Below are positions 13,992 through 40,085 of a stretch of 40,085 nt of DNA, piece after piece. The first letter of the stretch is position 1. Every line of letters starts with the position of its first letter. The notes under the pieces are model-generated. The model had not been told where the DNA came from. It did no database searches and saw only the letters and a program-made list of their open reading frames with translations. Both the position numbers and the translations under genes were made by a program. The stretch is from DATKZS01 sp035527835 [NCBI: bacterium]. GTDB lineage: Bacteria > RBG-13-61-14. The DNA is taken from positions 1-40,085 of the forward strand of contig DATKZS010000011.1 of the NCBI GenBank assembly GCA_035527835.1, written 5' to 3'.

Positions 13992-14864
13992 ATGATGCGT
14001 GATACCAGGTCAAGCGGGACATGGCTGGTGATTCTGGCCGCCCTGTTGTGGAGCACGGGCGGGGCGGCGATCAAATACGTTGACGCCGACGGCGCGGTGG
14101 TGGCGGCGGCCCGGTGCCTGATCGCGGGCCTGGTTTTCCTTCCCTTCATCCGTCCCGGCCGGGTGCGATTTTCCTGGAAGCTCCTCGCGCTGATGCTTTG
14201 CTATCCCCTGATGAGCGCGAGCTTCGTCATCGCCACCAAGTGGACCACCGCCATGAACGCCGTGGCCATTCAGTACACGGCGCCGCTGTGGATCTTCCTG
14301 GCGCTGGCCGCGGCCGGGACGATCAGGCCCACGGCCCGCCGCGCCGCGCCCATGGTCCTGGCCGCATTCGGCATCATCCTCTTCCTCCTGGAGCCGGCCG
14401 CGGGCACGAGCCTTAAAGGGAACCTGGTGGCCATCGTCTCCGGCGTCGGGTTCGCGCTGGTCATCGTGCTCTTCCGCGCCCTGCGCGATGAGCATTCCCT
14501 GACGCTGGTGAGCCTGTCCAACTTAGCCACGGCGCTCGTGCTCTTCCCCTATATCCTGCATACCGGGCAGGCGGCCCAGCTGCGAGGGCTCGACGGCGGG
14601 GGCTGGCTGTGCCTCCTGTACCTGGGCGCGTTCCAGATCGGACTCGCCTATGTCCTGTACTCGCGCGGGCTGCGCACTATCACCGCGCTCAAGGCCTCCA
14701 CCATCTCGCTGATCGAGCCCGTGCTCAACCCGGTCTGGGCCTTCATAATCATGAGCGAACTGCCCAGCGGCTACGGCGTCGCCGGGGCCGTGGCTATTTT
14801 AGGGGGAGTGACGGCGGATGCTTATCTTAATCCGGGGGGTAAACAAGTGGAAAGGGAAGAGTAA
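13992..14864 (+). CDS. EamA/DMT-superfamily transporter
   Basis: 290 residues with ten hydrophobic segments, built as two EamA repeats (about 10-137 and 150-282). Typical motifs are ILAALLWSTGGAAIKYV at the start, ARCLIAGLVFLPF, and ATKWTTAMNAVAIQYTAPLW in the first half. In the second half are LYSRGLRTITALKASTISLI and EPVLNPVWAFIIM. The family exports or imports small metabolites such as amino acids or nucleosides; the substrate is not predictable. No good ribosome site precedes ATG 13992, so ATG 13995 is equally possible. Its TAA (14862-14864) overlaps the first bases of the palindromic repeat that separates it from the convergent lysS gene. Confidence 0.9.
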   Translation: MMRDTRSSGTWLVILAALLWSTGGAAIKYVDADGAVVAAARCLIAGLVFLPFIRPGRVRFSWKLLALMLCYPLMSASFVIATKWTTAMNAVAIQYTAPLWIFLALAAAGTIRPTARRAAPMVLAAFGIILFLLEPAAGTSLKGNLVAIVSGVGFALVIVLFRALRDEHSLTLVSLSNLATALVLFPYILHTGQAAQLRGLDGGGWLCLLYLGAFQIGLAYVLYSRGLRTITALKASTISLIEPVLNPVWAFIIMSELPSGYGVAGAVAILGGVTADAYLNPGGKQVEREE

Positions 14865-14930
14865 CCGCCAAGACGCCAAGAGCGCCAAGATTTATTGGAA
14901 ATAAATTTTATTCTTGGCGTCTTGGCGGTT
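14863..14930. repeat. Palindrome of the AACCGCCAAGACGCC family, convergent terminator-like
   Basis: The left arm AACCGCCAAGACGCCAAGA (from 14863) is perfectly complementary to the right arm TCTTGGCGTCTTGGCGGTT (to 14930). Each arm contains tandem CGCCAAGA units, and the loop is AT-rich. It lies between the converging EamA and lysS genes, ending 15 bases before the lysS stop. It could serve as a bidirectional terminator. A longer member with 30-bp arms is at 39869-40076. Confidence 0.88.
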
Positions 14931-16732: not shown

Positions 16733-17888
16733 TTATTCCGCCCGGGCCTGGGCCGGTTCGGGTTCGGGCTTGGCCGGGGGCGGCTTTCCATTCATGCTTT
16801 CCTGCATGAGGTAGGCCTCGATGAAGGGATGGATGGCGCCGTCGAGCACGGCCTGGACGTTTCCGGTCTCGTGGTCGGTGCGCAGGTCCTTGATCAACTG
16901 ATAGGGCTGGAGCACGTAGGACCGGATTTGCGAGCCCCACTCGATTTCCTTCTTGTCGGAGGAGAAGGCCTCGATTTTTTCCTTTTGCTTGCGCTCCTCC
17001 AATTGGTAGAGCCTGGCTTTGAGGACCTTCATGCAGAAGGCCCTGTTCTTGTGCTGGCTGCGCTCGTTCTGGCACTGGACCACGGTGTTGGTGGGGAGGT
17101 GGGTGATGCGGACGGCGGAGCTGGTCTTGTTGACCTTCTGGCCGCCGTGTCCGGAGGCGCGATAGGTGTCAACCCGGAGGTCTTCGGGATTGATCTCGAC
17201 CGAGATGTCTTCCTCGATGTCGGGAAGAACGAAGACGGCGGCGAAGCTGGTGTGGCGCCGCTTGTTGGCGTCAAAGGGGGAGATGCGGACCAAGCGGTGC
17301 ACGCCGCGCTCGGCCTTGAGATAGCCGTAGGCATATTGGCCGCGGACGGCGAACATGATGCTCTTGATGCCCGCTTCTTCTCCGGGCTGCTCGTCGAGGA
17401 TTTCAACCTCGTAGCCCATGCGCTCGAAGTAACGCATGTACATGCGCGAGAGCATTGATGCCCAGTCCTGGGCCTCGGTGCCGCCGGCGCCGGCGTTGAT
17501 TGAGAGGAAGCAATCGCTCTGGTCGTGCTCGCCGGAGAGCATGCGCTCGAGCTTCAACTGTTTCACCCTGGGCTCGAGCGACTCGATGGCGGCGCCGGCC
17601 TCCTTGGCCGCGGCTTCATCGTTCTCCTCGTCGGCCAGGTCAAGGAGCACCTCGGCGTCCTCCAGCTCCTTGTCCATGCGCCGCCACTTGGCGAGCTCGT
17701 CAACGATGCGCTTTTGTTCGCGGTTTACCTTGGCGGCGCGCTCGGGGTCGGTCCAGAAGTCAGCCGACTCCATGACGGCGCGGAGCGCGGTAAGCTTCTG
17801 CTCCATCCCGGCAAAGTCAAAGATACCCCCGGAGCTTGTTGTACTCTTCCTTCAAGGCTTTCAGCTTCTCGCGGTGCTCACTGAACAT
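16733..17888 (-). CDS. prfB: Peptide chain release factor 2 with programmed +1 frameshift
   Basis: The reading frame is complement of 17888-17820 joined to 17818-16733, skipping T 17819. From ATG 17888 (AAAGGAG 8 bases upstream) the zero frame gives 23 codons ending in CTT and then TGA (17819-17817). The context CGGGGGTATCTTTGAC is the classic prfB slip site with an internal Shine-Dalgarno-like GGGGG. After the +1 slip, translation continues D-F-A-G-MEQKLTALRAVM, giving 384 residues. RF2 features are the SPFDANKR loop holding the SPF stop-codon reader and ASGHGGQKVNKTSS with the catalytic GGQ at 248-250. It terminates translation at UGA and UAA, and autoregulates through the in-frame UGA. lysS follows downstream. 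A start at 17806 would miss the N-terminal 27 residues. Confidence 0.95.
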
Positions 17889-20383: not shown

Positions 20384-20422
20384 GTTGAGTCCATGGTTTA
20401 TTCCAGCTAAAGGGAGGGATTG

Positions 20423-22168
20423 ATGGGGAAATATTCGCCGAACATCATCGCCAATTGTCTCATCTCGCTTAAGAAGCATAATCCCGGCGGCGAAGCCGTG
20501 GTGTACGGCGAGCGGAGGGTGACGTGGGGCGCGCTCGCGGGCCGGGCCCTGAAGCTCGCGCGGGCCATGCAGAAGCTCGGGGTGAAGAAGAACGACAAGG
20601 TGACGTTCATGTTCCACAACTGCCCCGAGTTCGTGGAGCTAAATTACGCGATCCAGGTTGCGGGCGCGGTGCCGGTGCCGATGAACTACCGTTTCATCCC
20701 GCGCGAGATCGAGTTCCAGGCCCAGCACTCGGACTCGACCCTGTTCATCTACGAAAGCATCTGGCGGGAGCAGGTGGAGAAGGCGGCGCCGAACCTCACC
20801 GGCATCCGGAATTACGTGTGCCGCGGCGAGGGCGGAATTTCCGGGGCCATTGAATACGAGGAGTTCGTGAGCTCGGGCGAGGAGAGCGACCCCGCGGTCG
20901 CGACCGAGTGGGAGGACGCCGCGGTCATGGTCTATACCGGCGGCACCACCGGCTTCCCCAAGGGCGTGCTCCTTTCCTACGGCGCGCACCTGGACATGTT
21001 CGCGATCCTGCTCGCCAACGTGATCGTGCGGGGCGTGCAGATCGAGCTGACGCCGGAGCAGCTCGAGAACATCAAGGACGCGATCTCGATCCCGGGCCTG
21101 CGCTACGTGCAGCCGCTGCTGCGCACCAAGCTGATGAAAGGGTTCGTGGCGCGGCCCGGCGTCAAGAAAAAAGCGCAGTCTTTCCTGCGCTACGTGCTCT
21201 CGCACCCGGAGGCGGCGCGCTTCGGGTACGCCAACACCATCAAGTACATGGTGCCTTCGATGCCCTTCTTCCACGACGCGTCGTACCAGATCCTGCTCAT
21301 GGGCATCATGGTGGGCAACATCTGTTACGTGCTGGTGCCGGGCGTGAAGTTCGAGCCCGCCGCCATCCTGGAAATCGTGCAGCGCGAGCAGCCCATATTC
21401 ATGGCCAACGTGCCCACCGGCTGGAAAAAGCTCGTGTCCTATCCCGGCCTCAAGGAATACGACGTGTCCTCGCTCAAGATCGCGGCCACCGGCGCCGGCG
21501 CCGCCTCGGTCGCGCTCAAGCGCAAAATGTTCGAGACCTTCCCCGGCGTCCTGGTGCTGGACATGTTCGGCCAGACCGAGATGACGCCGGTGACCAGCTT
21601 CCGCATTGACGCCGGCCCGGACTCGCTCAAGGAGCGGTCGGTGGGCCAGTCCATTGTCGAGGTCAAGATCGTTGACGAGAACGGGGCGGAGGTGCCGCCG
21701 GGGCAGGCCGGAGAGATCATGTATAAGTCGTCCACCGTGATGATGGGCTATTACAAGGACGAGGGCAAGACGAGCGAGGCCATGGAGGGCGGCTGGTTCA
21801 AGAGCGGGGACCTGGGCTACCTGGACGAGGAGGGCGAGGTCCGGCTGATAGACCGGAAGAATGAGTGCATCAACACGGGCGGGGAAAAGGTATTCCCGCT
21901 GGAGGTGGAGGAGATCGTGCACCAGCACCCTCAGGTGGACGACGTTTGCATCATCGGGGTGCCGGACGACGAGTGGGGCTGCACGGTGCGCGCGGTGGTG
22001 CAGCTCAAGCGCGGCCAGAAGGCGAACCCGGAGGACATCATCGAGTTCTGCCGGGACAAGCTGGCGGGCTTCAAGATCCCGCGCTCGGTGGTGTTAGTGG
22101 ATGAGCTGCCGCTCTCGCCGGTGGGCAAGGTGCTGCGGCAGAAGATCCGGGATATGTACGGGAGCTGA
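20423..22168 (+). CDS. AMP-forming acyl-CoA synthetase (ANL superfamily)
   Basis: 581 residues. It activates a carboxylic acid to the acyl-AMP and then the acyl-CoA. Motifs in order are YTGGTTGFPKGV (171-182, ATP P-loop), MPFFHDASY (acyl pocket region), MFGQTEMTPVTSFR, and GWFKSGDLGYLDEEGEVRLI with the ribose-binding Asp. Then come RKNECINTGGEKVFPLEVEE (hinge) and SPVGKVLR with catalytic Lys569. Between the P-loop and MPFFH there are about 97 residues instead of the usual 45 or so, including LTPEQLENIKDAISIPG and a Lys-rich stretch. The start is ATG 20423 (AGGGAGGG upstream), not the TTG at 20420. It is monocistronic. It could supply the acyl-CoA dehydrogenase at 5417, but substrate length is unknown. 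Confidence 0.92.
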   Translation: MGKYSPNIIANCLISLKKHNPGGEAVVYGERRVTWGALAGRALKLARAMQKLGVKKNDKVTFMFHNCPEFVELNYAIQVAGAVPVPMNYRFIPREIEFQAQHSDSTLFIYESIWREQVEKAAPNLTGIRNYVCRGEGGISGAIEYEEFVSSGEESDPAVATEWEDAAVMVYTGGTTGFPKGVLLSYGAHLDMFAILLANVIVRGVQIELTPEQLENIKDAISIPGLRYVQPLLRTKLMKGFVARPGVKKKAQSFLRYVLSHPEAARFGYANTIKYMVPSMPFFHDASYQILLMGIMVGNICYVLVPGVKFEPAAILEIVQREQPIFMANVPTGWKKLVSYPGLKEYDVSSLKIAATGAGAASVALKRKMFETFPGVLVLDMFGQTEMTPVTSFRIDAGPDSLKERSVGQSIVEVKIVDENGAEVPPGQAGEIMYKSSTVMMGYYKDEGKTSEAMEGGWFKSGDLGYLDEEGEVRLIDRKNECINTGGEKVFPLEVEEIVHQHPQVDDVCIIGVPDDEWGCTVRAVVQLKRGQKANPEDIIEFCRDKLAGFKIPRSVVLVDELPLSPVGKVLRQKIRDMYGS

Positions 22169-22220
22169 GGCGGGCGCGACTGAAGCTGCTTCCACATCGC
22201 AGTTGCGGCGAACGGCGCCG

Positions 22221-22270
22221 AGCGGCGCTTTGCAGTGCGCGGGCACGGCCGCGCTTTCATTGGCGCTGAT
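22221..22270 (-). repeat. GCGGC-type REP copy, inverted member
   Basis: Read on the minus strand it gives ATCAGCGCCAATGAAAGCGC, followed by a GC-rich hairpin and GCACTGCAAAGCG. It matches the copies at 22363 and 36343. With the 22363 copy it forms an inverted pair around about 90 bp, between the acyl-CoA synthetase and the DUF4380 gene. Confidence 0.75.
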
Positions 22271-22362
22271 GTCTCGCGGGCCTGATGCCCTGCGGACAAC
22301 TGACGGATAGATAGGTGAAGCATCAAGCCGTGAGACGGAATGAGGCTTGTCTAACCATATCA

Positions 22363-22410
22363 GCTTTAATGAAAGCGGCGTCGTGCCGCGGCACTCCAAA
22401 GCGGCGGGTC
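22363..22410 (+). repeat. GCGGC-type REP copy
   Basis: Reads CAGCTTTAATGAAAGCGGCG, then TCGTGCCGCGGCACT, then CCAAAGCG. The hairpin GCGGC-gtcgt-GCCGC sits in the middle. It is clearly homologous to 22221-22270 and 36343-36390. Confidence 0.75.
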
Positions 22411-22452
22411 GCGGATTAGGCCGCTCGTACAGTAGGAAGGAGGGGTAAGGAG

Positions 22453-23526
22453 ATGAAGGCTTGGTGGTTGGCGGTGATGGCGCTGGGTCTTTTGCCGGCG
22501 GCGGCGCTGGCGGCGGTGGTCAAGGAGGGCGTGGATTACAAGGGGTGGAAGTGCGTGTCGCTTTCGAACAAGACGACGCAGGTGCTGGTGGCGCCGGAGC
22601 TGGGCGGCCGGATCATCCAGTACCGGGTGAACGGCAAGGAGTGGCTGTGGGTGAACCAGGACCTGGCGGGCAAGGTGGAGCCGCTGCCGGAAAAGGTGGA
22701 CATGGATTTGTGGAAGAATTACGGCGGCGACAAGCTGTGGCCGGCGCCGCAGGGCTGGAGCGGCAAGGGCCAGTGGCCCGGTCCCGGCGACGCGGTGATG
22801 GACGCGCCGTTCAAGTATGAGGTGCTCGCGGGCAAGGGCAAGCAAGTGAAGCTCAAGCTCACCGGGTCGAGCGAGGGCGGATACGCCGGCGTGCAGTACG
22901 AGCGCACGCTCACCTTGAAGGACGGATCGAGCCGGCTCACCATCGAGATCACCATGAAGAACGTCTCCGACCGCGCCGTGTCCTGGGGCATCTGGGAGGT
23001 GGCGCAGATGGACTTCTCGGACCACGGCAAAAAGCGCGGCGCTAACGACTGGAACGAGGACGCCTACCTCGCGATCCCGCTGAACCCGAACAGCCGCTGG
23101 CCGGAGAAGTGCCAGGTCATGTTCGGCGAGGCCTCGAGCTTCAACTGGCAGCCGGACTATCAGAAGGGCCTGATGATCGTGCGCTACATGAATTTCGTGG
23201 GCAAGATGACGCTGGACGTGTCGGCCGGGTGGGCGGCCATGGTTGACCCGGCCAAGGGCCAGACCTTTGTCGAGCGCTTCCCGGCCTACGACGCGACCCA
23301 GGATTATCCGGACGGCGGGAACTTCGAGGTCTGGGTCGCGGGCAAGGGCGAGTTCGTGCACAAGAACGAGCGCCGCGTGGCCGCGGACGATCCTCAGGGC
23401 CGCCTGATCGAGATGGAGCCGCTGGGCCCCAAAGTCACTCTCAAGCCCGGAGAAGAAACCTATCTTAAGACCAGTTGGGAGGTATATAAGGGCGGGCTCG
23501 AAGCCGTGCCGGAAATGAAAAAATAA
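22453..23526 (+). CDS. Secreted DUF4380-like protein (galactose-mutarotase fold)
   Basis: 357 residues. A signal peptide is clear: MKAWWLAVMALGLLPAAALA, with likely cleavage after Ala-Leu-Ala near 20-21. The mature part is beta-rich and follows the DUF4380 pattern: VLVAPELGGRIIQYRVNGKE, WPAPQGWSGKGQWPGPGDAV, TIEITMKNVSDRAVSWGIWE, and FPAYDATQDYPDGGNFEVW, with ETYLKTSWEVYKGG at the end. The GGRI and WPAPQ segments match the carbohydrate-recognition face of aldose-epimerase-like superfamily members. It is probably periplasmic or extracellular and may bind or process sugars; no enzymatic function is established for the family. GGAGGGGTAAGGAG before ATG 22453 fixes the start. Confidence 0.85.
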   Translation: MKAWWLAVMALGLLPAAALAAVVKEGVDYKGWKCVSLSNKTTQVLVAPELGGRIIQYRVNGKEWLWVNQDLAGKVEPLPEKVDMDLWKNYGGDKLWPAPQGWSGKGQWPGPGDAVMDAPFKYEVLAGKGKQVKLKLTGSSEGGYAGVQYERTLTLKDGSSRLTIEITMKNVSDRAVSWGIWEVAQMDFSDHGKKRGANDWNEDAYLAIPLNPNSRWPEKCQVMFGEASSFNWQPDYQKGLMIVRYMNFVGKMTLDVSAGWAAMVDPAKGQTFVERFPAYDATQDYPDGGNFEVWVAGKGEFVHKNERRVAADDPQGRLIEMEPLGPKVTLKPGEETYLKTSWEVYKGGLEAVPEMKK

Positions 23527-23548
23527 GCCGGTTTAATGGCCGTGTTGA

Positions 23549-23583
23549 GGGACGGACTCATCCCCGGAGGAGGGTCCGTTCCC
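23549..23583. terminator. Hairpin after the DUF4380 gene
   Basis: GGGACGGAC (23549-23557) pairs with GTCCGTTCCC (23574-23583) with one bulged T, around a C/G-rich loop. It is 23 bases after the stop and has no T-run, so it is a possible rather than certain terminator. Confidence 0.45.
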
Positions 23584-23689
23584 CGCTATTAACAATAATA
23601 TCACGATGCTTTGCGCGCTGGGGGAGCGCGGGGAGCGCCGGTTGACACCCTCCCCTTTGTCGAATAAAGTAAATGACAGGGAAGAATTG

Positions 23690-25273
23690 ATGCCGCCGCG
23701 CGTGTTATTATCCTCGGTCTTCAAGCCGTTCGGAATTGACAATATTTATAGCCGAAGGGAATCCAAGATCGAGCTGTTCCACAACCAGCTCACCAAGGCT
23801 CAGGGACCGTTCTCGATCCGCAACTTTTACCATACCTTCGGCCTCCACCTCATCGCCAAAAATATTTCCGCCCCGACCACGGTGCTGGATTTCCCCACCC
23901 TGGATCGCTTCCGCCGGGAAGTTAAAAAGGGCTACGACATCGTAGGGCTGGGCGCGATCACGCCCAATTTCCAGAAGGTGAAACGGATGGTGGAGGAGAC
24001 GAGAGAGCTTTCGCCCGGGTCCACCATCGTGCTCGGGGGCTTCTGCGCCTCGGTCCCGGACATTGAGAAAATGATGAAGGTGGATTACGTGTGCGTGGGC
24101 GACGGCATCACCTTTATGCGCGACCTGTTGGGTGAGCCCCAGGAGTTCCGGTTCCAGAACCCGGACATCTGGAGCGAGACGCGGGAGATTTTCGGGGCGC
24201 CGGTGTTCGGGGCGAGGAACCCGCAGATTGTGGTCGGGCTGGGCTGCTCATACGGCTGCGATTTCTGTTCGCCCAGCCATTTTTTCGGCCGGCGGCACAT
24301 CAAGTTTTTCAAGAACGGCGATGAGCTGTATCAGGAGATGCTGCGGGTGGAGCGGCGTTTCGGCTCGCTGGTGATCGGCTTGGTGGGCGACGATAATTTT
24401 TTGCTCGACCTGACGCGGGCCGAGGAGCTCCGGCGCCGGGTGGTGGAGGGCGGCAAGGTCTGGAACCTCTTCATTTTCGGGTCCGCGGACAAGGCGGCCG
24501 AGTTCGGGCCGGAGAAGCTGGCGGAGATGGGGGTGAGCACGATCTGGATCGGCCGCGAGAGCAGGTTTTCGGAATATCCGAAGATGCGCCGCGTCAATCT
24601 TCCGGAATTGATCGCCGGGCTCAGGTCTTACGGGATCAAGACCATCTTGAGCTCGATCCTGCTGGTGGACCGGCACACCAAGGAGAACATCGGGGAGGAC
24701 ATTGATGAACATCTGGCCGCCGGGCCGACTTTCAGCCAATTCTGCCATTACGGTCCGCTGCCGGGAACTCCGCTTTACGACCGGATGAACGAGGATGGCA
24801 GGCTTCTCACCGCCATTCCCTACGAGGAATGGCACGGATTCAAGCAGCCGTGGTTCGTTCACCCCGCATTCACGCTGGCGGAGGCCGAACAAATCCAGGA
24901 GCGGGCCTACCAGCGCGATTTCCACGAGCTCGGCCCGTCGCTGATGCGCTTCATCGCCGCGGAGCTCGAGGGCTGGCGGAACCTGCGAAACTCCAGCCGG
25001 TCTCATCTCCGGGCGCGGGCAAAATATTTTGCGGGCCAGATGTGGAAATACAAGGTCATGCTCCTGACCATGGAGTATGCCGCGCCCTCCAGGGAGATGA
25101 AATGCAAGGTGCGGGAGACGCGGGAGCGGGTGGAGAGCTCATTCGGCAAAGCCGGCGCCTTGGAAAAGTCCCTCGCCCTCGGGCTGGCCGGGACGAGCCG
25201 TTGGCGTGAGTTCCGGAGCCGGCGCTGGGGCGACGCAGTGCAGCCGCGAACCAGAGTAGCCCATTATAACTGA
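23690..25273 (+). CDS. Radical SAM protein with putative cobalamin-binding N-domain, paralogue 1
   Basis: 527 residues. Cys186, Cys190 and Cys193 in GLGCSYGCDFCSPSHFFGRR are the C-x3-C-x2-C ligands of the 4Fe-4S cluster that cleaves SAM. The preceding 170 residues have a Rossmann-like pattern (YDIVGLGAITPNFQKVKRMV, STIVLGGFCASVPD, DYVCVGDG), as in BchE-type B12-dependent radical SAM enzymes, but without the DxHxxG base-off histidine. The radical barrel continues with VIGLVGDDNFLLD, IWIGRESRF and YGIKTILSSILLVDRHTKEN. A distinctive C-terminal helical domain contains EGWRNLRNSSRSHLRARAKY. The start is ATG 23690; the upstream in-frame extension is not protein-like. It is followed by a paralogue on the same strand. 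The substrate is unknown; methyl transfer or ring chemistry is possible by family analogy. Confidence 0.88.
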   Translation: MPPRVLLSSVFKPFGIDNIYSRRESKIELFHNQLTKAQGPFSIRNFYHTFGLHLIAKNISAPTTVLDFPTLDRFRREVKKGYDIVGLGAITPNFQKVKRMVEETRELSPGSTIVLGGFCASVPDIEKMMKVDYVCVGDGITFMRDLLGEPQEFRFQNPDIWSETREIFGAPVFGARNPQIVVGLGCSYGCDFCSPSHFFGRRHIKFFKNGDELYQEMLRVERRFGSLVIGLVGDDNFLLDLTRAEELRRRVVEGGKVWNLFIFGSADKAAEFGPEKLAEMGVSTIWIGRESRFSEYPKMRRVNLPELIAGLRSYGIKTILSSILLVDRHTKENIGEDIDEHLAAGPTFSQFCHYGPLPGTPLYDRMNEDGRLLTAIPYEEWHGFKQPWFVHPAFTLAEAEQIQERAYQRDFHELGPSLMRFIAAELEGWRNLRNSSRSHLRARAKYFAGQMWKYKVMLLTMEYAAPSREMKCKVRETRERVESSFGKAGALEKSLALGLAGTSRWREFRSRRWGDAVQPRTRVAHYN

Positions 25274-25330
25274 GTTTGACGGGGTGAGGTCGGTTCACTA
25301 GAGCCGGTTTCATAACCCTTTCAAGAAGAA

Positions 25331-25408
25331 GAAACAAGGATATTAAGGATAATCAGGATAAGAAAAGCCCCTGGATTTATCCTTAAAATCCTTAATATCC
25401 TTGTTTCT
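25331..25408. repeat. Palindrome of the ACAAGGATATTAAGGAT family
   Basis: The left arm GAAACAAGGATATTAAGGAT (25331-25350) is perfectly complementary to ATCCTTAATATCCTTGTTTC (25389-25408). Tandem AAGGAT units continue inward in both arms. It lies between the two radical-SAM paralogues, 57 bases after the first stop. Related elements are at 27945 and 39690. Confidence 0.88.
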
Positions 25409-25478
25409 GATCTTCTGGTCGGGGATGATGGTGCTGGTTATGAAACCAGTTGTAGATTAAGATTCGGAGGAAGTCGGG

Positions 25479-27080
25479 ATGCGGCCGCGGATTCTGCTGT
25501 CATCGGTTTTCAAGCCTTTCGGCGTTGACAATATGTACAGCCGGAAAGGTTCCAAGATCGAGCTGTTCCATAATCAGATCACCCAGTTCCAAGGGGTGTT
25601 CTCGCTGCGCTCCCATATGTATAGTTACGGGCTGCACGCCATCGCCAATAATATAGACGCCCCCACCACCGTCCTGGAATTTCCCAGCTTCGAGCGCTTC
25701 CGCACGGAAATAAAAAAAGGCTATGACATCGTGGGCATTGGCGCATACATGCCCAATTTTCAGAAAGTGAAACGGATGGTGGAGGAAACGCGCAAGCTTT
25801 CGCCGCGCTCCACCATTGTCCTGGGCGGCTTCTGCGCCGCCGTCCCGGACCTGGAGAAGATGATGGACGTGGACTACGTGTGCATCGGCGACGGGGTCAC
25901 GTTCATGCGGGACCTGCTCGGAATGAGCAAGGATTTCACGTTCCGCGACGCGGAGATGTACGGGGAGGCCCGGGAGATGCTGGGCGTTCCCGTGTTCGGG
26001 CTGCGCAAATATCCGTATATAGTGGTGGGCCTGGGCTGTTCCTATGGCTGCGATTTTTGCTGTCCCAGTCACTTTTTCGGCCGCAAGCATATCAAGTTTT
26101 TCACCGGCGGCCGTGAGATCTTCGAGACCATGGTCCGGATCGAGCGCAAGTACCGCTCGAACCTGATTTGCCTGATCGGGGACGATAATTTCCTTCTTGA
26201 TTTGAAGCGGGCGGAAGAACTCCGGAAGTGCGTGGCGGACAGCGGCAAGGTTTTCAACATGCTGGTCTTCGGGTCATCGGACCAGGCGGTGGAGTTTGGG
26301 CCGGAGAAGCTGGCCGAGATGGGGGCAGGGACGCTCTGGATCGGCCGCGAGAGCATGTTTGGAGGCTATCGCAAGAACGCGGACATGAATATCAAGGGGC
26401 TGGTGGCGGAGCTCAAGCGCTATGGCATCAAGACCATCTTGAGCTCGATCCTGCTGCTGGACCAGCACACCAAGGAAAACATTGTAACCGACATTGACGA
26501 CCACCTGGCGTGTAAGCCTACCATGAGCCAATTCGCTCATCTTGCTCCCGTCCCGGGCACCCCCCTGTTCGACCGGATGCGCGAGGACCGGCGGATCCTG
26601 ACCGCCATTCCCTTTGAGGACTGGAATTACTTCACCCAACCGTGGTACACTCATCCCCACTTCAGCCTTACGGAAGCGCAGGAGGTCCAGGCCCGCGCGT
26701 ACCTGCGCGACTTCCACGAGCTCGGGCCTTCGCTCCTGCGCTATCTGGAGACGGAATATGAAGGCTGGCGGAACTTGAAGGATTCCGGCAAGCCGCATTT
26801 GCGCGCCCGGGCCGCATACTTCGCCGGCGAGATGCGCAAATATAAGGTCTTGCTTCTGGCCATGGAACACCTGGCGCCCACGGAGGAGATGCGGGACATG
26901 GTCCGGGAGGTCCGCGGGCGGGTCGAGGGGTCTTTTGGCCGCGCCAACGCACTGGAACAGGCGGTGGCGCGCGGCATCTTTGTCGCCGGCCGCTTCCGCG
27001 AGTTCCGGACCCGGCACTGGGGCGACGCCATTCAGCCAAGGACCATCGTAAAATACTATAACCAGGACCGGAAGGTATAA
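25479..27080 (+). CDS. Radical SAM protein with putative cobalamin-binding N-domain, paralogue 2
   Basis: 533 residues. It is collinear with paralogue 1 over its whole length; by my count 71 of the first 100 residues are identical. The cluster cysteines are Cys187, Cys191 and Cys194 in GLGCSYGCDFCCPSHFFG, with one extra Cys at 195. Shared blocks include LLSSVFKPFG, SKIELFHNQ, KKGYDIVG, PNFQKVKRMVEETR, YGIKTILSSILLLDQHTKEN and FHELGPSLLRY. The most divergent parts are residues 36-60 (QGVFSLRSHMYSYGLHA) and the strand before the cluster, likely substrate-side differences. GGAGGA lies 7 bases before ATG 25479. The pair is a tandem duplication that has been retained, suggesting two related reactions. 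No substrate gene is obvious nearby; an SDR follows. Confidence 0.88.
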   Translation: MRPRILLSSVFKPFGVDNMYSRKGSKIELFHNQITQFQGVFSLRSHMYSYGLHAIANNIDAPTTVLEFPSFERFRTEIKKGYDIVGIGAYMPNFQKVKRMVEETRKLSPRSTIVLGGFCAAVPDLEKMMDVDYVCIGDGVTFMRDLLGMSKDFTFRDAEMYGEAREMLGVPVFGLRKYPYIVVGLGCSYGCDFCCPSHFFGRKHIKFFTGGREIFETMVRIERKYRSNLICLIGDDNFLLDLKRAEELRKCVADSGKVFNMLVFGSSDQAVEFGPEKLAEMGAGTLWIGRESMFGGYRKNADMNIKGLVAELKRYGIKTILSSILLLDQHTKENIVTDIDDHLACKPTMSQFAHLAPVPGTPLFDRMREDRRILTAIPFEDWNYFTQPWYTHPHFSLTEAQEVQARAYLRDFHELGPSLLRYLETEYEGWRNLKDSGKPHLRARAAYFAGEMRKYKVLLLAMEHLAPTEEMRDMVREVRGRVEGSFGRANALEQAVARGIFVAGRFREFRTRHWGDAIQPRTIVKYYNQDRKV

Positions 27081-27152
27081 GAGGGAAAGAGAAGAGGGCA
27101 TATCAAGGTCCGCTTTCTTGACTGATTGCTGTCTATTAATAGAGGGGGAACA

Positions 27153-27914
27153 ATGGCGGTGAACTTCAGCTTAAAGGACAAGGTGGCGATTGTTACCGGA
27201 GCAAGCCGGGGCATCGGCGAGTCCATCGCGCGGACCTTCGCCGCGCAAGGCGCCAAGGTGGTGTTGTCGTCGCGCAAGCAGGAGGCGCTGGACGCCGTCG
27301 CGGACTCGATCAAGAAGGCCGGCGGCGAGGCCCTGCCGGTGGCGTGCCACACCGGCGAGTGCGGCCAGATCAACGCGCTCTTCGACCAGACCATGGCCGC
27401 GTACGGGCGGGTGGACATCCTGGTCAACAACGCCGCGACCAATCCGTACTTCGGCGACGTGCTCCACATCAGCGAGAGCCAGTTCGACAAGACCTTTGAC
27501 GTCAACACCAAGGGCTATTTCTTCATGGCCCAGAAGGCGGGGCTGATCATGATGCAGCAGAAAAAGGGCTGCATCATCAACGTGGCCTCCATCGCCGGCA
27601 TCCAGGCCTCGCCCATGCAGGGCGTGTACGGCATGACCAAGGCCGCGGTCATTCTCATGACCAAGTCGTTCGCCAAGGAGCTGGCCCCGTTCGGCGTCCG
27701 TTCCAACGCCATCTGCCCCGGACTCACCGCGACCAAATTCAGCAAGGTGCTGATCGAAACCAAGCCGATTTACGACGCCGCCATGATGATGATCCCCATG
27801 AAGCGCCACGCGCAGCCCGACGAGATCGCGGGCGCCGCGCTCTTCCTGGCCTCCGAGGCCGGGAGCTACGCCAACGGCGCGGTCATCGTGGTGGACGGAG
27901 GGGCAACGACCTGA
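27153..27914 (+). CDS. Short-chain dehydrogenase/reductase (FabG-like)
   Basis: 253 residues, classical SDR. The cofactor loop is VTGASRGIG (14-22). LVNNAATNPY (90-99) supplies the NNA motif. The catalytic set is Asn118, Ser146 in NVASIAGIQAS, and Tyr159 with Lys163 in VYGMTKAA. The C-terminus has SNAICPGLTATKF and the closing NGAVIVVDGGATT, as in 3-oxoacyl-ACP reductases and related NAD(P)H alcohol dehydrogenases. A start at ATG 27153 is set by AGAGGGGGA upstream; the in-frame Met at 27126 has no site. It lies 72 bases after the second radical-SAM gene on the same strand and may be cotranscribed with it, so it could reduce or oxidise a shared product. The substrate is not determined. Confidence 0.9.
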   Translation: MAVNFSLKDKVAIVTGASRGIGESIARTFAAQGAKVVLSSRKQEALDAVADSIKKAGGEALPVACHTGECGQINALFDQTMAAYGRVDILVNNAATNPYFGDVLHISESQFDKTFDVNTKGYFFMAQKAGLIMMQQKKGCIINVASIAGIQASPMQGVYGMTKAAVILMTKSFAKELAPFGVRSNAICPGLTATKFSKVLIETKPIYDAAMMMIPMKRHAQPDEIAGAALFLASEAGSYANGAVIVVDGGATT

Positions 27915-27944
27915 AGAAGGCCATTCGGGCAATTTTAAAAATGA

Positions 27945-28014
27945 TTAAACAAGGAGGTACAGGATATTCAGGATAATAAAATCTTATCCTTGACATCCTG
28001 AATATCCTTGTTAA
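27945..28014. repeat. Palindrome of the AAGGAT/CAGGAT family
   Basis: The left arm (27945-27976) has TTAAACAAGGAGGTACAGGA followed by TATTCAGGATAA. The right arm (27984-28014) holds TTATCCTTGACATCCTGAAT and then ATCCTTGTTAA. They pair well over ACAAGGA and ATATTCAGGAT. It sits between the convergent SDR and DegT genes and can serve both as a terminator. Confidence 0.82.
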
Positions 28015-28074
28015 TGAATTCTTTGTTTGCGGGCTCGGGCCGCGCTGGGTCTCTGCGCGAAATCAATCCCGCCG

Positions 28075-29271
28075 CTATTTACGGTAATACCCGAGCACCT
28101 TCTTCACCGCGGCGATCACGTCGTCCACGTCGGACCCGCCAAGCCACGGGTTGAGCGGGAGCGAGATCAGCGACCGCGACGCCCGCTCCGCGTGGGGCAG
28201 GCTGCCCGGCCGGTAGCCGTACTTGTCGCGGTAATAGCTCTGCTCGGGCACGCTCAGAAAATGAACCCCTACCCCGATCCCTTCACGCTGGAGCGCGTTA
28301 AGGATGTGATCGCGGTCAACCCGGAGCTTGCCGAGCTCCACCATGACCGCATACAGATGGTACGCGCTCTCGCAGTAGTCGGGCACCGTGAGCAGCGCGA
28401 GCGCGTCGTCCTCCCCCAAAGCCTCGTCATAGCGCGCCGCGATCTCCCGGCGCCGCTGCTGAAAGGCCGGGAACTTGTCGAGCTGGCTGAGCCCGATGGC
28501 CGCGAGCACGTCGGACAGATTGTACTTGAAGCCGACCTCCTTGACGTCCGTGTGCCGGAAGCCGGACGGGCCGTAGCGGCCCATGGCCTCCTTGTTGATC
28601 CCGTGCCAGCGCAGCCGCCGCGCGCGCTCGGCCATCGCGTCATCATTCGTGACCAGCATCCCGCCCTCGCCCGTGGTCACGTTCTTGGTGGCGTAGAAGC
28701 TCATGCAGGTGAGCTCCGAGATCGAGCCCACCGGCCGGCCCTTGTAAAATGTCCCCAGCGCGTGCGCGGCGTCCTCGATGACCCGCAGTCCGTGTTCTCT
28801 CGCCAGCTCCGTGATCGGGTCCAGGTCGCAGGCGATCCCGGTCATGTGCACCGGCATGACGGCCCGCGTTTGCGAAGTGACCGCCGCCGCGATCAGGTCA
28901 GGGTCAATGTTGAGGTCGGAGGAACGGACGTCAACGAAGACCGGGCGCGCGCCCACCGCCTCGATCATGTTGACGGTGGCGGCGAAGGTGATGGGCGTGG
29001 TGATGACCTCGTCGCCGGGCCGGAGATCGAGGCAGAGCAGCGCCACGTGCAGGGCGGCGGTGCCGGAGGTCATGGCCACGCCGTGGGCCGCGCCGCTCAT
29101 GGCCGCGACCCGGCGCTCCAGCTCCTCGCATTTCCTGCCCGTGGTGATCCAGCCGGAGCGCATGGCCTCGAGCACCGCCCGCTCCTCCTCCGGCCCCAGC
29201 ACCGGCCGATGGAACAAGAGCGGCTCCTGCCGCACGGGCGTTCCGCCCTCTATGGCCGGCTTGTCGTCCAT
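28075..29271 (-). CDS. DegT/DnrJ/EryC1/StrS-family aminotransferase
   Basis: 398 residues, PLP-dependent fold type I. Lys196 in SFYATKNVTTGEGG is the Schiff-base lysine. Other family blocks are GRKCEELERRVAAMSGAAHG, SGTAALHVALLCLDLRPGDE, EDAAHALGTFYKG, and the C-terminal GVGVHFLSVPEQSYYRDKYG, then SRSLISLPLNPWL. These enzymes typically aminate keto-sugars in surface-polysaccharide or antibiotic-sugar pathways. The ATG at 29271 overlaps the trpA stop in TGATG, with GAGAGG just upstream, so translation is coupled to trpA. A GTG at 29274 is a less likely start. The pairing with trpA is unusual. Glycosyltransferases are 15 kb away, not adjacent. Confidence 0.92.
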   Translation of the reverse strand: MDDKPAIEGGTPVRQEPLLFHRPVLGPEEERAVLEAMRSGWITTGRKCEELERRVAAMSGAAHGVAMTSGTAALHVALLCLDLRPGDEVITTPITFAATVNMIEAVGARPVFVDVRSSDLNIDPDLIAAAVTSQTRAVMPVHMTGIACDLDPITELAREHGLRVIEDAAHALGTFYKGRPVGSISELTCMSFYATKNVTTGEGGMLVTNDDAMAERARRLRWHGINKEAMGRYGPSGFRHTDVKEVGFKYNLSDVLAAIGLSQLDKFPAFQQRRREIAARYDEALGEDDALALLTVPDYCESAYHLYAVMVELGKLRVDRDHILNALQREGIGVGVHFLSVPEQSYYRDKYGYRPGSLPHAERASRSLISLPLNPWLGGSDVDDVIAAVKKVLGYYRK

Positions 29272-36342: not shown

Positions 36343-36390
36343 GGTCAGCGCCAATGAAAGCGGCGTCGTGCCGCCGCACTGCAACGCGCG
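36343..36390 (+). repeat. GCGGC-type REP copy, abutting a stop codon
   Basis: Reads GGTCAGCGCCAATGAAAGCG, then GCGTCGTGCCGCCGCACTGC, then AACGCGCGC. It is homologous to 22221-22270 and 22363-22410. It ends directly at the stop codon (36391-36393) of the minus-strand membrane-protein gene. Confidence 0.8.
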
Positions 36391-39868: not shown

Positions 39869-40076
39869 AACCGCCAAGACGCCAAGAGCGCCAAGGATTA
39901 TTTTTTAACAAGATTTTAAGAGGGCTTGGGTGCGAATGTTTCTTGCTTGGCGCTCCCGTCGGCCGGTCCGCCAAGCCGGTTGGGGCCAACGCTCCGGAGC
40001 TGTTATTTGCCGGGCCGCAAAGAAACATCATGATTTACTTGGCGATCCTTGGCGCTCTTGGCGTCTTGGCGGTTTT
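39869..40076. mobile_element. 208-bp MITE-like element of the AACCGCCAAGACGCC family
   Basis: A 30-bp arm at 39869-39898 (AACCGCCAAGACGCCAAGAG, then CGCCAAGGAT) is perfectly repeated in inverted orientation, ending at 40076. The roughly 150-bp interior holds further inverted pieces: CTTGGCG and CGCCAAG, and the pair GTTTCTT and AAGAAAC. There is no coding capacity. It is the long form of the short palindrome at 14863-14930. No clear target-site duplication is visible. The region 39772-39868 before it and the final nine bases hold no gene. Confidence 0.8.
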
Positions 40077-40085
40077 CTTACGGCC

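What the first reader, a model, noticed from the sequence alone, without database searches (positions are those of the whole stretch)
23690..27080. Tandem paralogous radical-SAM proteins with a conserved C-terminal helical domain
Two full-length collinear proteins (about 71 % identical in the first 100 residues by my count) carry C-x3-C-x2-C plus a BchE-like N-domain lacking the DxHxxG histidine. A C-terminal helical block ending in RRWGDA(V/I)QPRT is conserved in both. The duplication has been kept with divergence mainly at residues 36-60 and before the cluster. The cofactor may be cobalamin bound without base-off His. An SDR lies just downstream. I know no named family with this exact layout.
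Basis: partly seen in the sequence, partly recalled or inferred. Interest (0 to 1): 0.72.

Follow-up and report, generated by a model that had tools for sequence, protein, structure and literature searches.

The report
Tandem B12-type radical SAM enzymes
Two neighbouring, related genes encode enzymes of a well-known architecture (vitamin B12 plus radical SAM) that belong to an unnamed subfamily of unknown product; the gene pair is real but ordinary for this enzyme class.

Summary
Two collinear ORFs, 23690-25273 (527 aa) and 25479-27080 (533 aa), are 66% identical (348/528). Each has CX3CX2C, a Pfam B12-binding match above cut-off, and no DxHxxG in the N-domain. A cobalamin domain without that histidine, a radical SAM barrel and a C-terminal helical bundle is the known layout of 'class 1' cobalamin-dependent radical SAM enzymes (OxsB, TsrM, TokK; PMC13331322), so it is not new. 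The predicted model keeps the B12 fold. No NCBIfam model reaches its cut-off: an unnamed subfamily. Relatives occur in 27 of 386 genomes searched, without a conserved neighbourhood that I could find. The window's SDR has its best match in G003 on a contig without listed relatives. More than one copy or part-copy lies in 3 of 26 wide loci tested: L001 (three), L056 (one plus a broken copy), L083 (two). The window pair duplicated apart from the L001/L056 copies. Most likely paralogous cobalamin-dependent tailoring enzymes; reaction and product unknown. New member of a known kind.

The parts
23690..25273 (+). Copy 1: cobalamin-type radical SAM protein, 527 aa; nearer to the family consensus
   Evidence: Pfam B12-binding 34.1 bits (cut-off 32.1), Radical_SAM 26.5 (cut-off 29.5); departs at 5 of the 13 consensus sites listed
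25479..27080 (+). Copy 2: cobalamin-type radical SAM protein, 533 aa; more derived paralogue
   Evidence: Pfam B12-binding 34.0 bits (cut-off 32.1), Radical_SAM 21.9 (cut-off 29.5); departs at 11 of the 13 consensus sites listed
25479..25928 (+). Copy 2 N-terminal cobalamin-type Rossmann domain (residues 1-150), with the family motif ELFHNQ(I/V)TxxQGxFS at about 28-42
   Evidence: VIA-align: human methylmalonyl-CoA mutase 3bic_A Z 10.2, rmsd 2.3, 115 aligned, model 1-148; motif column counts. The model is poor (pLDDT under 50) at 11-49
26007..26654 (+). Copy 2 radical SAM barrel (residues 177-392): C187/C191/C194, DDNF 235-238, E291, K299, Q351
   Evidence: C187, C191, C194, E291, K299, Q351 invariant in 36 of 36 rows; acidic letters at 235 and 236 in all 36 rows
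26655..27077 (+). Copy 2 C-terminal helical domain (residues 393-533), five predicted helices
   Evidence: Separate model mean pLDDT 73.8, pTM 0.62, last 18 residues under 50; no Pfam family there at E <= 0.01 in 21 members
25330..25408 (.). 32-nt inverted repeat (91% complementary, 15-nt spacer) between the two genes; a related stretch lies at 27984-28017
   Evidence: I7, D10, I10
23642..23670 (+). Sigma-70-like promoter match just upstream of copy 1 (weak: 1 found in 22100-28100, mean 1.8 in shuffles)

Best explanation
Both genes encode anaerobic, cobalamin-dependent radical SAM enzymes of the class 1 layout: base-off cobalamin on an N-terminal Rossmann domain, a [4Fe-4S]/SAM barrel, and a C-terminal helical bundle. 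SAM is cleaved to a 5'-deoxyadenosyl radical, which abstracts hydrogen from an unactivated carbon. Cobalamin then most likely delivers a methyl group (my estimate about 50%) or assists a HpnJ/BchE-type rearrangement or cyclisation (about 30%). The substrate is probably a scattered-pathway metabolite such as a lipid or polyol, not the product of an adjacent cluster. The two copies arose by an old tandem duplication and probably act on different positions or related substrates; copy 2 is the more derived. Shown: sequence, domain matches, duplication, low dN/dS, no conserved neighbourhood in the loci compared. Inferred: cofactor binding, reaction, substrate, division of labour.
For: B12-binding Pfam hits above cut-off in both copies; 21 of 21 members of alignment A1 match it at E <= 0.01. 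C187, C191, C194, E291, K299 and Q351 are invariant in 36 of 36 rows. The profile finds AprD4 (2.4e-08), and weakly TokK (0.013) and TsrM (0.028), among solved structures. By VIA-align the full-length model best matches TsrM (Z 13.8, rmsd 7.2, 350 aligned) and AprD4 (Z 12.8), with OxsB, MgmA and TokK also listed; residues 1-148 match B12 domains of methylmalonyl-CoA mutase and IcmF at rmsd 2.3-2.7. In the HMMER alignment TokK Trp76, the residue that occupies the space under cobalt (PMC13331322), falls on profile position 92, which I take as Pro92 of copy 2; Pro is there in 15 of 18 core-clade rows. dN 0.247 against dS 1.01. The tree pairs the window copies at 100/99.
Against: Radical_SAM Pfam scores are below cut-off in both window copies. 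The TokK alignment is weak (11.4 bits for that stretch). The full-length model is mediocre (mean pLDDT 62.6, pTM 0.63; 164 residues under 50, including 11-49 and 152-206). Foldseek TM-scores to TsrM, CysS and AprD4 are only 0.35-0.40 by query length. Radical SAM proteins that I know as not needing cobalamin (MtaB, MiaB, RimO, NifB) match at Z 10-12 too. The best solved relative by sequence is AprD4, a diol dehydratase and not a methylase, which weakens the methylase guess. Nothing shows cobalamin binding, and no neighbour names a substrate.
Confidence: 0.6

Rival explanations
1. Non-methylating enzymes of the AprD4/HpnJ/BchE kind (dehydration, ring contraction or cyclisation), in which the B12-like domain is structural or cobalamin plays another role.
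For: HpnJ and BchE are the NCBIfam models matched by all 21 members of A1 at E <= 0.001; AprD4 is the top solved sequence (2.4e-08) and the second distinct protein by Z (12.8).
Against: Scores are far below cut-offs (HpnJ 31.3 and 28.8 of 577.6 bits; BchE 21.0 and 21.1 of 481.35). In five relatives' genomes the HpnJ model finds 30 to 42 matches each, none over cut-off, and the best ones (E 8.5e-60 or better in G001-G003) are far stronger than its match to this family (45.6 bits in G001 and in G122), so the resemblance is generic.
Confidence: 0.3
2. Membrane-lipid modifying enzymes analogous to archaeal GrsA or other radical SAM lipid enzymes, the two copies making successive changes to one lipid.
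For: No conserved cluster was found around the relatives, as would be expected for an abundant membrane substrate; an AMP-binding (acyl-CoA ligase-like) gene at 20420-22168 and an SDR flank the pair in the window; TIGR04072, a lipid-biosynthesis B12/radical SAM model, matches 14 of 21 members at E <= 0.001.
Against: TIGR04072 scores are far under cut-off (14.7 and 11.2 of 360 bits for the window copies). No neighbour of the pair has a match among the neighbours in L001 or L056. GrsA, Mss and Tes sequences were not compared.
Confidence: 0.2
3. The pair is redundant or decaying: an accidental tandem duplication with no division of labour.
For: L056 holds one intact copy and a broken second copy; copy 2 departs from the core-clade consensus at 11 of the 13 sites listed.
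Against: Both window copies are full length with dN 0.247 against dS 1.01, and the six invariant radical SAM letters are kept in both.
Confidence: 0.15

Closest known systems
Class 1 cobalamin-dependent radical SAM enzymes (OxsB, TsrM, TokK)
   Same: Cobalamin Rossmann domain, radical SAM barrel, C-terminal helical bundle, cobalamin not held by a His ligand (model matches)
   Different: Low sequence identity (TsrM 15% over 350 residues); family motif ELFHNQ-x-T-x2-QGxFS in the N-domain; substrate unknown; Pro at the TokK Trp76 position in a weak alignment
HpnJ (TIGR03471)
   Same: Radical SAM region similarity, 21 of 21 members at E <= 0.001
   Different: 31.3 and 28.8 bits against a 577.6 cut-off
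AprD4 (PDB 6fd2)
   Same: Best solved relative by profile, 2.4e-08 over profile positions 178-371; Z 12.8
   Different: 12% identity in the fold match; the curated AprD4 model (NF033070) is not listed for either window copy at E <= 1, and matches 3 of 21 members at E <= 0.001
TIGR04013 (MJ_1487-type B12/radical SAM)
   Same: B12 domain plus start of the radical SAM region (29.5 and 30.2 bits)
   Different: Far below the 251-bit cut-off
L001 proteins of uncultured delta proteobacterium AlinenSedimentsD2_bin-1424
   Same: Same subfamily, 51-57% identity to the window copies, three tandem copies
   Different: Separate duplication in the tree; no shared neighbour found

Membership tests
Class 1 cobalamin-dependent radical SAM enzymes | CX3CX2C cluster motif | tested here: met
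   Once in each copy; the three Cys in 36 of 36 rows
Class 1 cobalamin-dependent radical SAM enzymes | N-terminal Rossmann cobalamin-binding domain | tested here: met
   Pfam B12-binding above cut-off; fold match Z 10.2, rmsd 2.3, 115 residues to 3bic_A
Class 1 cobalamin-dependent radical SAM enzymes | Radical SAM barrel after the cobalamin domain | tested here: met
   Pfam Radical_SAM matches over 180-339 and 181-339 but below cut-off (26.5 and 21.9 of 29.5); fold matches to TsrM, AprD4, OxsB and other radical SAM proteins; invariant catalytic letters
Class 1 cobalamin-dependent radical SAM enzymes | C-terminal helical bundle | tested here: inconclusive
   Five predicted helices, block pLDDT 75-92 over residues 21-110 of the separate model; alone it matches only unrelated helical bundles
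Class 1 cobalamin-dependent radical SAM enzymes | Bound cobalamin and SAM cleavage | not testable with these tools
   Needs purified protein
HpnJ | NCBIfam TIGR03471 cut-off 577.6 bits | tested here: not met
   31.3 and 28.8 bits
BchE | NCBIfam TIGR02026 cut-off 481.35 bits | tested here: not met
   21.0 and 21.1 bits
TIGR04013 | NCBIfam cut-off 251 bits | tested here: not met
   29.5 and 30.2 bits
GrsA, Mss, Tes lipid enzymes | Sequence membership in the family | not tested
   No sequences of these were compared; known here only from paper passages

The most novel reading that the evidence does not exclude
A so far unnamed cobalamin/radical SAM subfamily, found with different copy numbers in tandem in related lineages of a poorly known bacterial group, carries out successive carbon-centred modifications of one core metabolite (for example a membrane lipid) and so marks an undescribed product.
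Probability: 0.12. Interest if true: 0.6.

Novelty: new member of a known kind. Interest (0 to 1): 0.25.

Why it matters
It is one more unnamed subfamily in a large, little-characterised enzyme class. The tandem pair gives a natural comparison: a His found in 15 of 16 other core-clade rows (position 383) is Asn in copy 2, and an Ile found in 16 of 16 (position 90, in the loop that would lie near cobalt) is Tyr in copy 2, while copy 1 keeps both. That could show how these enzymes change substrate.

Tried and rejected
Search of the window's own genome failed: none is held. The single genome-contig scan gave one locus. Viral contigs gave no relative. Plasmids gave six records at 22.6-24.6% identity, none covering 80% of the query.

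A conserved neighbourhood was sought among mechanically chosen ORFs in 22 sources (window, L001 and 20 fetched stretches, E <= 1e-10) and again in 13 sources (E <= 1e-8; rows printed for four of them, and for window/L001/L056 pairs). The chosen ORFs include antisense ones, so real neighbours may have been missed. Shared neighbours were between close kin (L054/L055; L045/L047; L044/L068/L070), of generic kinds (another radical SAM protein in L054, L055 and L056; what look, from their opening letters, like ABC and signalling proteins), an antisense pair (L001/L050), or the window SDR with an ORF in L058 (32%). No partner is proposed; an SDR partnership is judged weak.

The C-terminal domain searched alone gave no Foldseek match at E <= 0.001, and its best Z values are to unrelated helical bundles (GAT domain Z 9.8); no origin is claimed. 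The viral library gave 5 matches at E <= 0.001, four of them named as Fe-S oxidoreductase, B12-binding, radical SAM or methylthiotransferase proteins. A single-sequence search of solved structures found nothing.

Literature: six full-text searches showed no title or abstract that I recognised as this subfamily; that is not proof of absence. PMC13331322: passages and section 5. PMC13274423 and PMC11868695: passages only. Other papers: search listings only. From recall, not from a call: that DDNF and the E...K letters are usual in B12 radical SAM proteins; that lipid radical SAM genes often stand alone; that MtaB, MiaB, RimO and NifB work without cobalamin.

Rows dropped before counts: five of 41 matched ORFs were left out of the 36-row alignment (three repeats of loci fetched twice, one cut by its locus end, one broken copy). 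One kept row contains a masked run, and one (L050) is cut by its contig end. L054 and L055 are near-identical and both counted. The 16 'other core-clade' rows exclude the window pair. A1 holds 21 rows: 20 of these ORFs and one L001 copy re-cut at an inner start. L083 was fetched because a second copy was suspected there, so the 3 of 26 is not an unbiased rate.
Full report
Observation. Two collinear ORFs at 23690-25273 and 25479-27080 encode 527 and 533 residues and are 66% identical over 528 columns. Both carry one CX3CX2C and no DxHxxG in the N-domain; a DxHxxG-like DFHELG lies at 410/411, outside that domain. The closing motif is RRWGDAVQPRT in copy 1 and RHWGDAIQPRT in copy 2. By part, identity is 112/150 in the B12 domain, 9/26 in the linker 151-176, 141/216 in the radical SAM region and 84/136 in the C-terminal region. 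dN 0.247 and dS 1.01 (NG86; YN00 failed) point to an old, selectively kept duplication.

Families. Pfam gives B12-binding above cut-off in both (34.1 and 34.0; cut-off 32.1) and Radical_SAM below cut-off (26.5 and 21.9; cut-off 29.5). No NCBIfam model reaches its cut-off; the leading ones (HpnJ, TIGR04013, ApyD, BchE) score about 19-31 bits. Across the 21 members of alignment A1, HpnJ and BchE match 21 and TIGR04072 matches 14 at E <= 0.001. Pfam at E <= 0.01 finds only B12-binding (21 of 21), Radical_SAM (20 of 21) and Fer4_12 (1 of 21). A single-sequence search of solved structures found nothing. The profile found seven distinct sequences at E <= 0.1: AprD4, two biotin synthases, 9ccb (MgmA), TokK, TsrM and RlmN.

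Fold. The model of copy 2, from a five-row alignment, is of middling quality (mean pLDDT 62.6, pTM 0.63). By VIA-align it matches TsrM (Z 13.8), AprD4 (12.8), OxsB (11.4), MgmA (11.3) and TokK (10.7). Residues 1-148 match the B12 domains of methylmalonyl-CoA mutase (Z 10.2, rmsd 2.3) and IcmF. MtaB, MiaB, RimO and NifB match at Z 10-12 as well, and Foldseek TM-scores are low (0.35-0.40 by query for TsrM, CysS and AprD4), so the barrel match is not specific. The C-terminal domain alone is a five-helix model (pLDDT 73.8) with only unrelated bundle matches.

Cobalamin. [quoted passage not shown] In these the residue under cobalt lies in the loop after strand 3 (Asn186, Arg69, Trp76). In the profile alignment TokK Trp76 falls on profile position 92, which I take as Pro92 of copy 2. 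The alignment is weak (11.4 bits), so this is a lead only.

Relatives. Genome contigs gave one locus, L001, with three tandem copies and a separate 354-aa ORF between the first two. The held genomes of its class number three: G001 itself; G002, with one intact copy and a broken one; and G003, with four relatives at 31-33% identity. Of 386 genomes 27 have a match at E <= 1e-30. The held genomes of two other phyla gave 5 of 7 and 3 of 4 at E <= 1e-60. The tree of 36 rows pairs the two window copies (100/99) and groups the L001 and L056 copies separately (100/98). Of 26 wide loci tested by tblastn at E <= 1e-15, 3 hold more than one copy or part-copy: L001, L056 and L083 (L083 was fetched on suspicion of this).

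Neighbours. Among the ORFs compared, the window, L001 and L056 share none apart from the copies themselves. Across the other loci the shared neighbours are between close kin or generic. The best match to the window's SDR in G003 (72%) is on contig C64; the G003 relatives listed are on other contigs. A weaker SDR-like ORF (32%) does lie 4.4 kb from the relative in L058. The five genomes searched with the HpnJ model have 30 to 42 matches each at E <= 0.001, none over cut-off, so genes of this general kind are plentiful in these organisms. For the window's release-factor protein (16733-17806), only G003 of 386 genomes passes E 1e-150 (69% identity), which suggests but does not prove that the window comes from the same small group.

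Mechanism. The best reading is a pair of cobalamin-dependent radical SAM tailoring enzymes with separate but related roles. Of 13 sites conserved in at least 13 of 16 other core-clade rows but changed in a window copy, copy 2 departs at 11 and copy 1 at 5. Among them are His383 to Asn and Ile90 to Tyr in copy 2, the latter in the loop expected near cobalt. Cofactor, reaction and substrate are inferred. Methylation is the reaction most associated with the class (start of the abstract of PMC13142503 in the listing); the AprD4 and HpnJ resemblances keep a non-methylating reaction open.

Verdict. Real, well conserved, an unnamed subfamily, but an ordinary member of a known enzyme class. Interest 0.25.

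Noticed in passing
25330-25408, with a related stretch at 27984-28017: Palindromic intergenic element of 32-nt arms (91% complementary) between the two genes, with a partial relative downstream of the SDR.
   Followed up: partly
14863-14896, 39869-39902, 40045-40077: Repeated AACCGCCAAGACGCCAAGAGCGCCAAG element in direct and inverted copies; looks like a dispersed intergenic repeat.
   Followed up: no
22225-22269, 22360-22403, 36345-36389: Related 44-45-nt elements in both orientations (D8 and I1), two of them in the gap before the DUF4380 gene.
   Followed up: no
L056:9425-10026: Broken second copy: N-terminal part joined to the C-terminal domain with the radical SAM core missing and a shifted frame near its start; could be decay or a metagenome assembly artefact.
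   Followed up: partly
22453-23526: Protein with a DUF4380 match and weak mutarotase-like match just upstream of the pair.
   Followed up: no
window copies, residues 410-416 (DFHELG): A DxHxxG-like hexamer sits at the start of the C-terminal domain in both copies; the L001 copies have DFYRLG there, so the His is not conserved. Probably chance.
   Followed up: partly
2393-2483: Short tandem CCCCAAG repeat.
   Followed up: no
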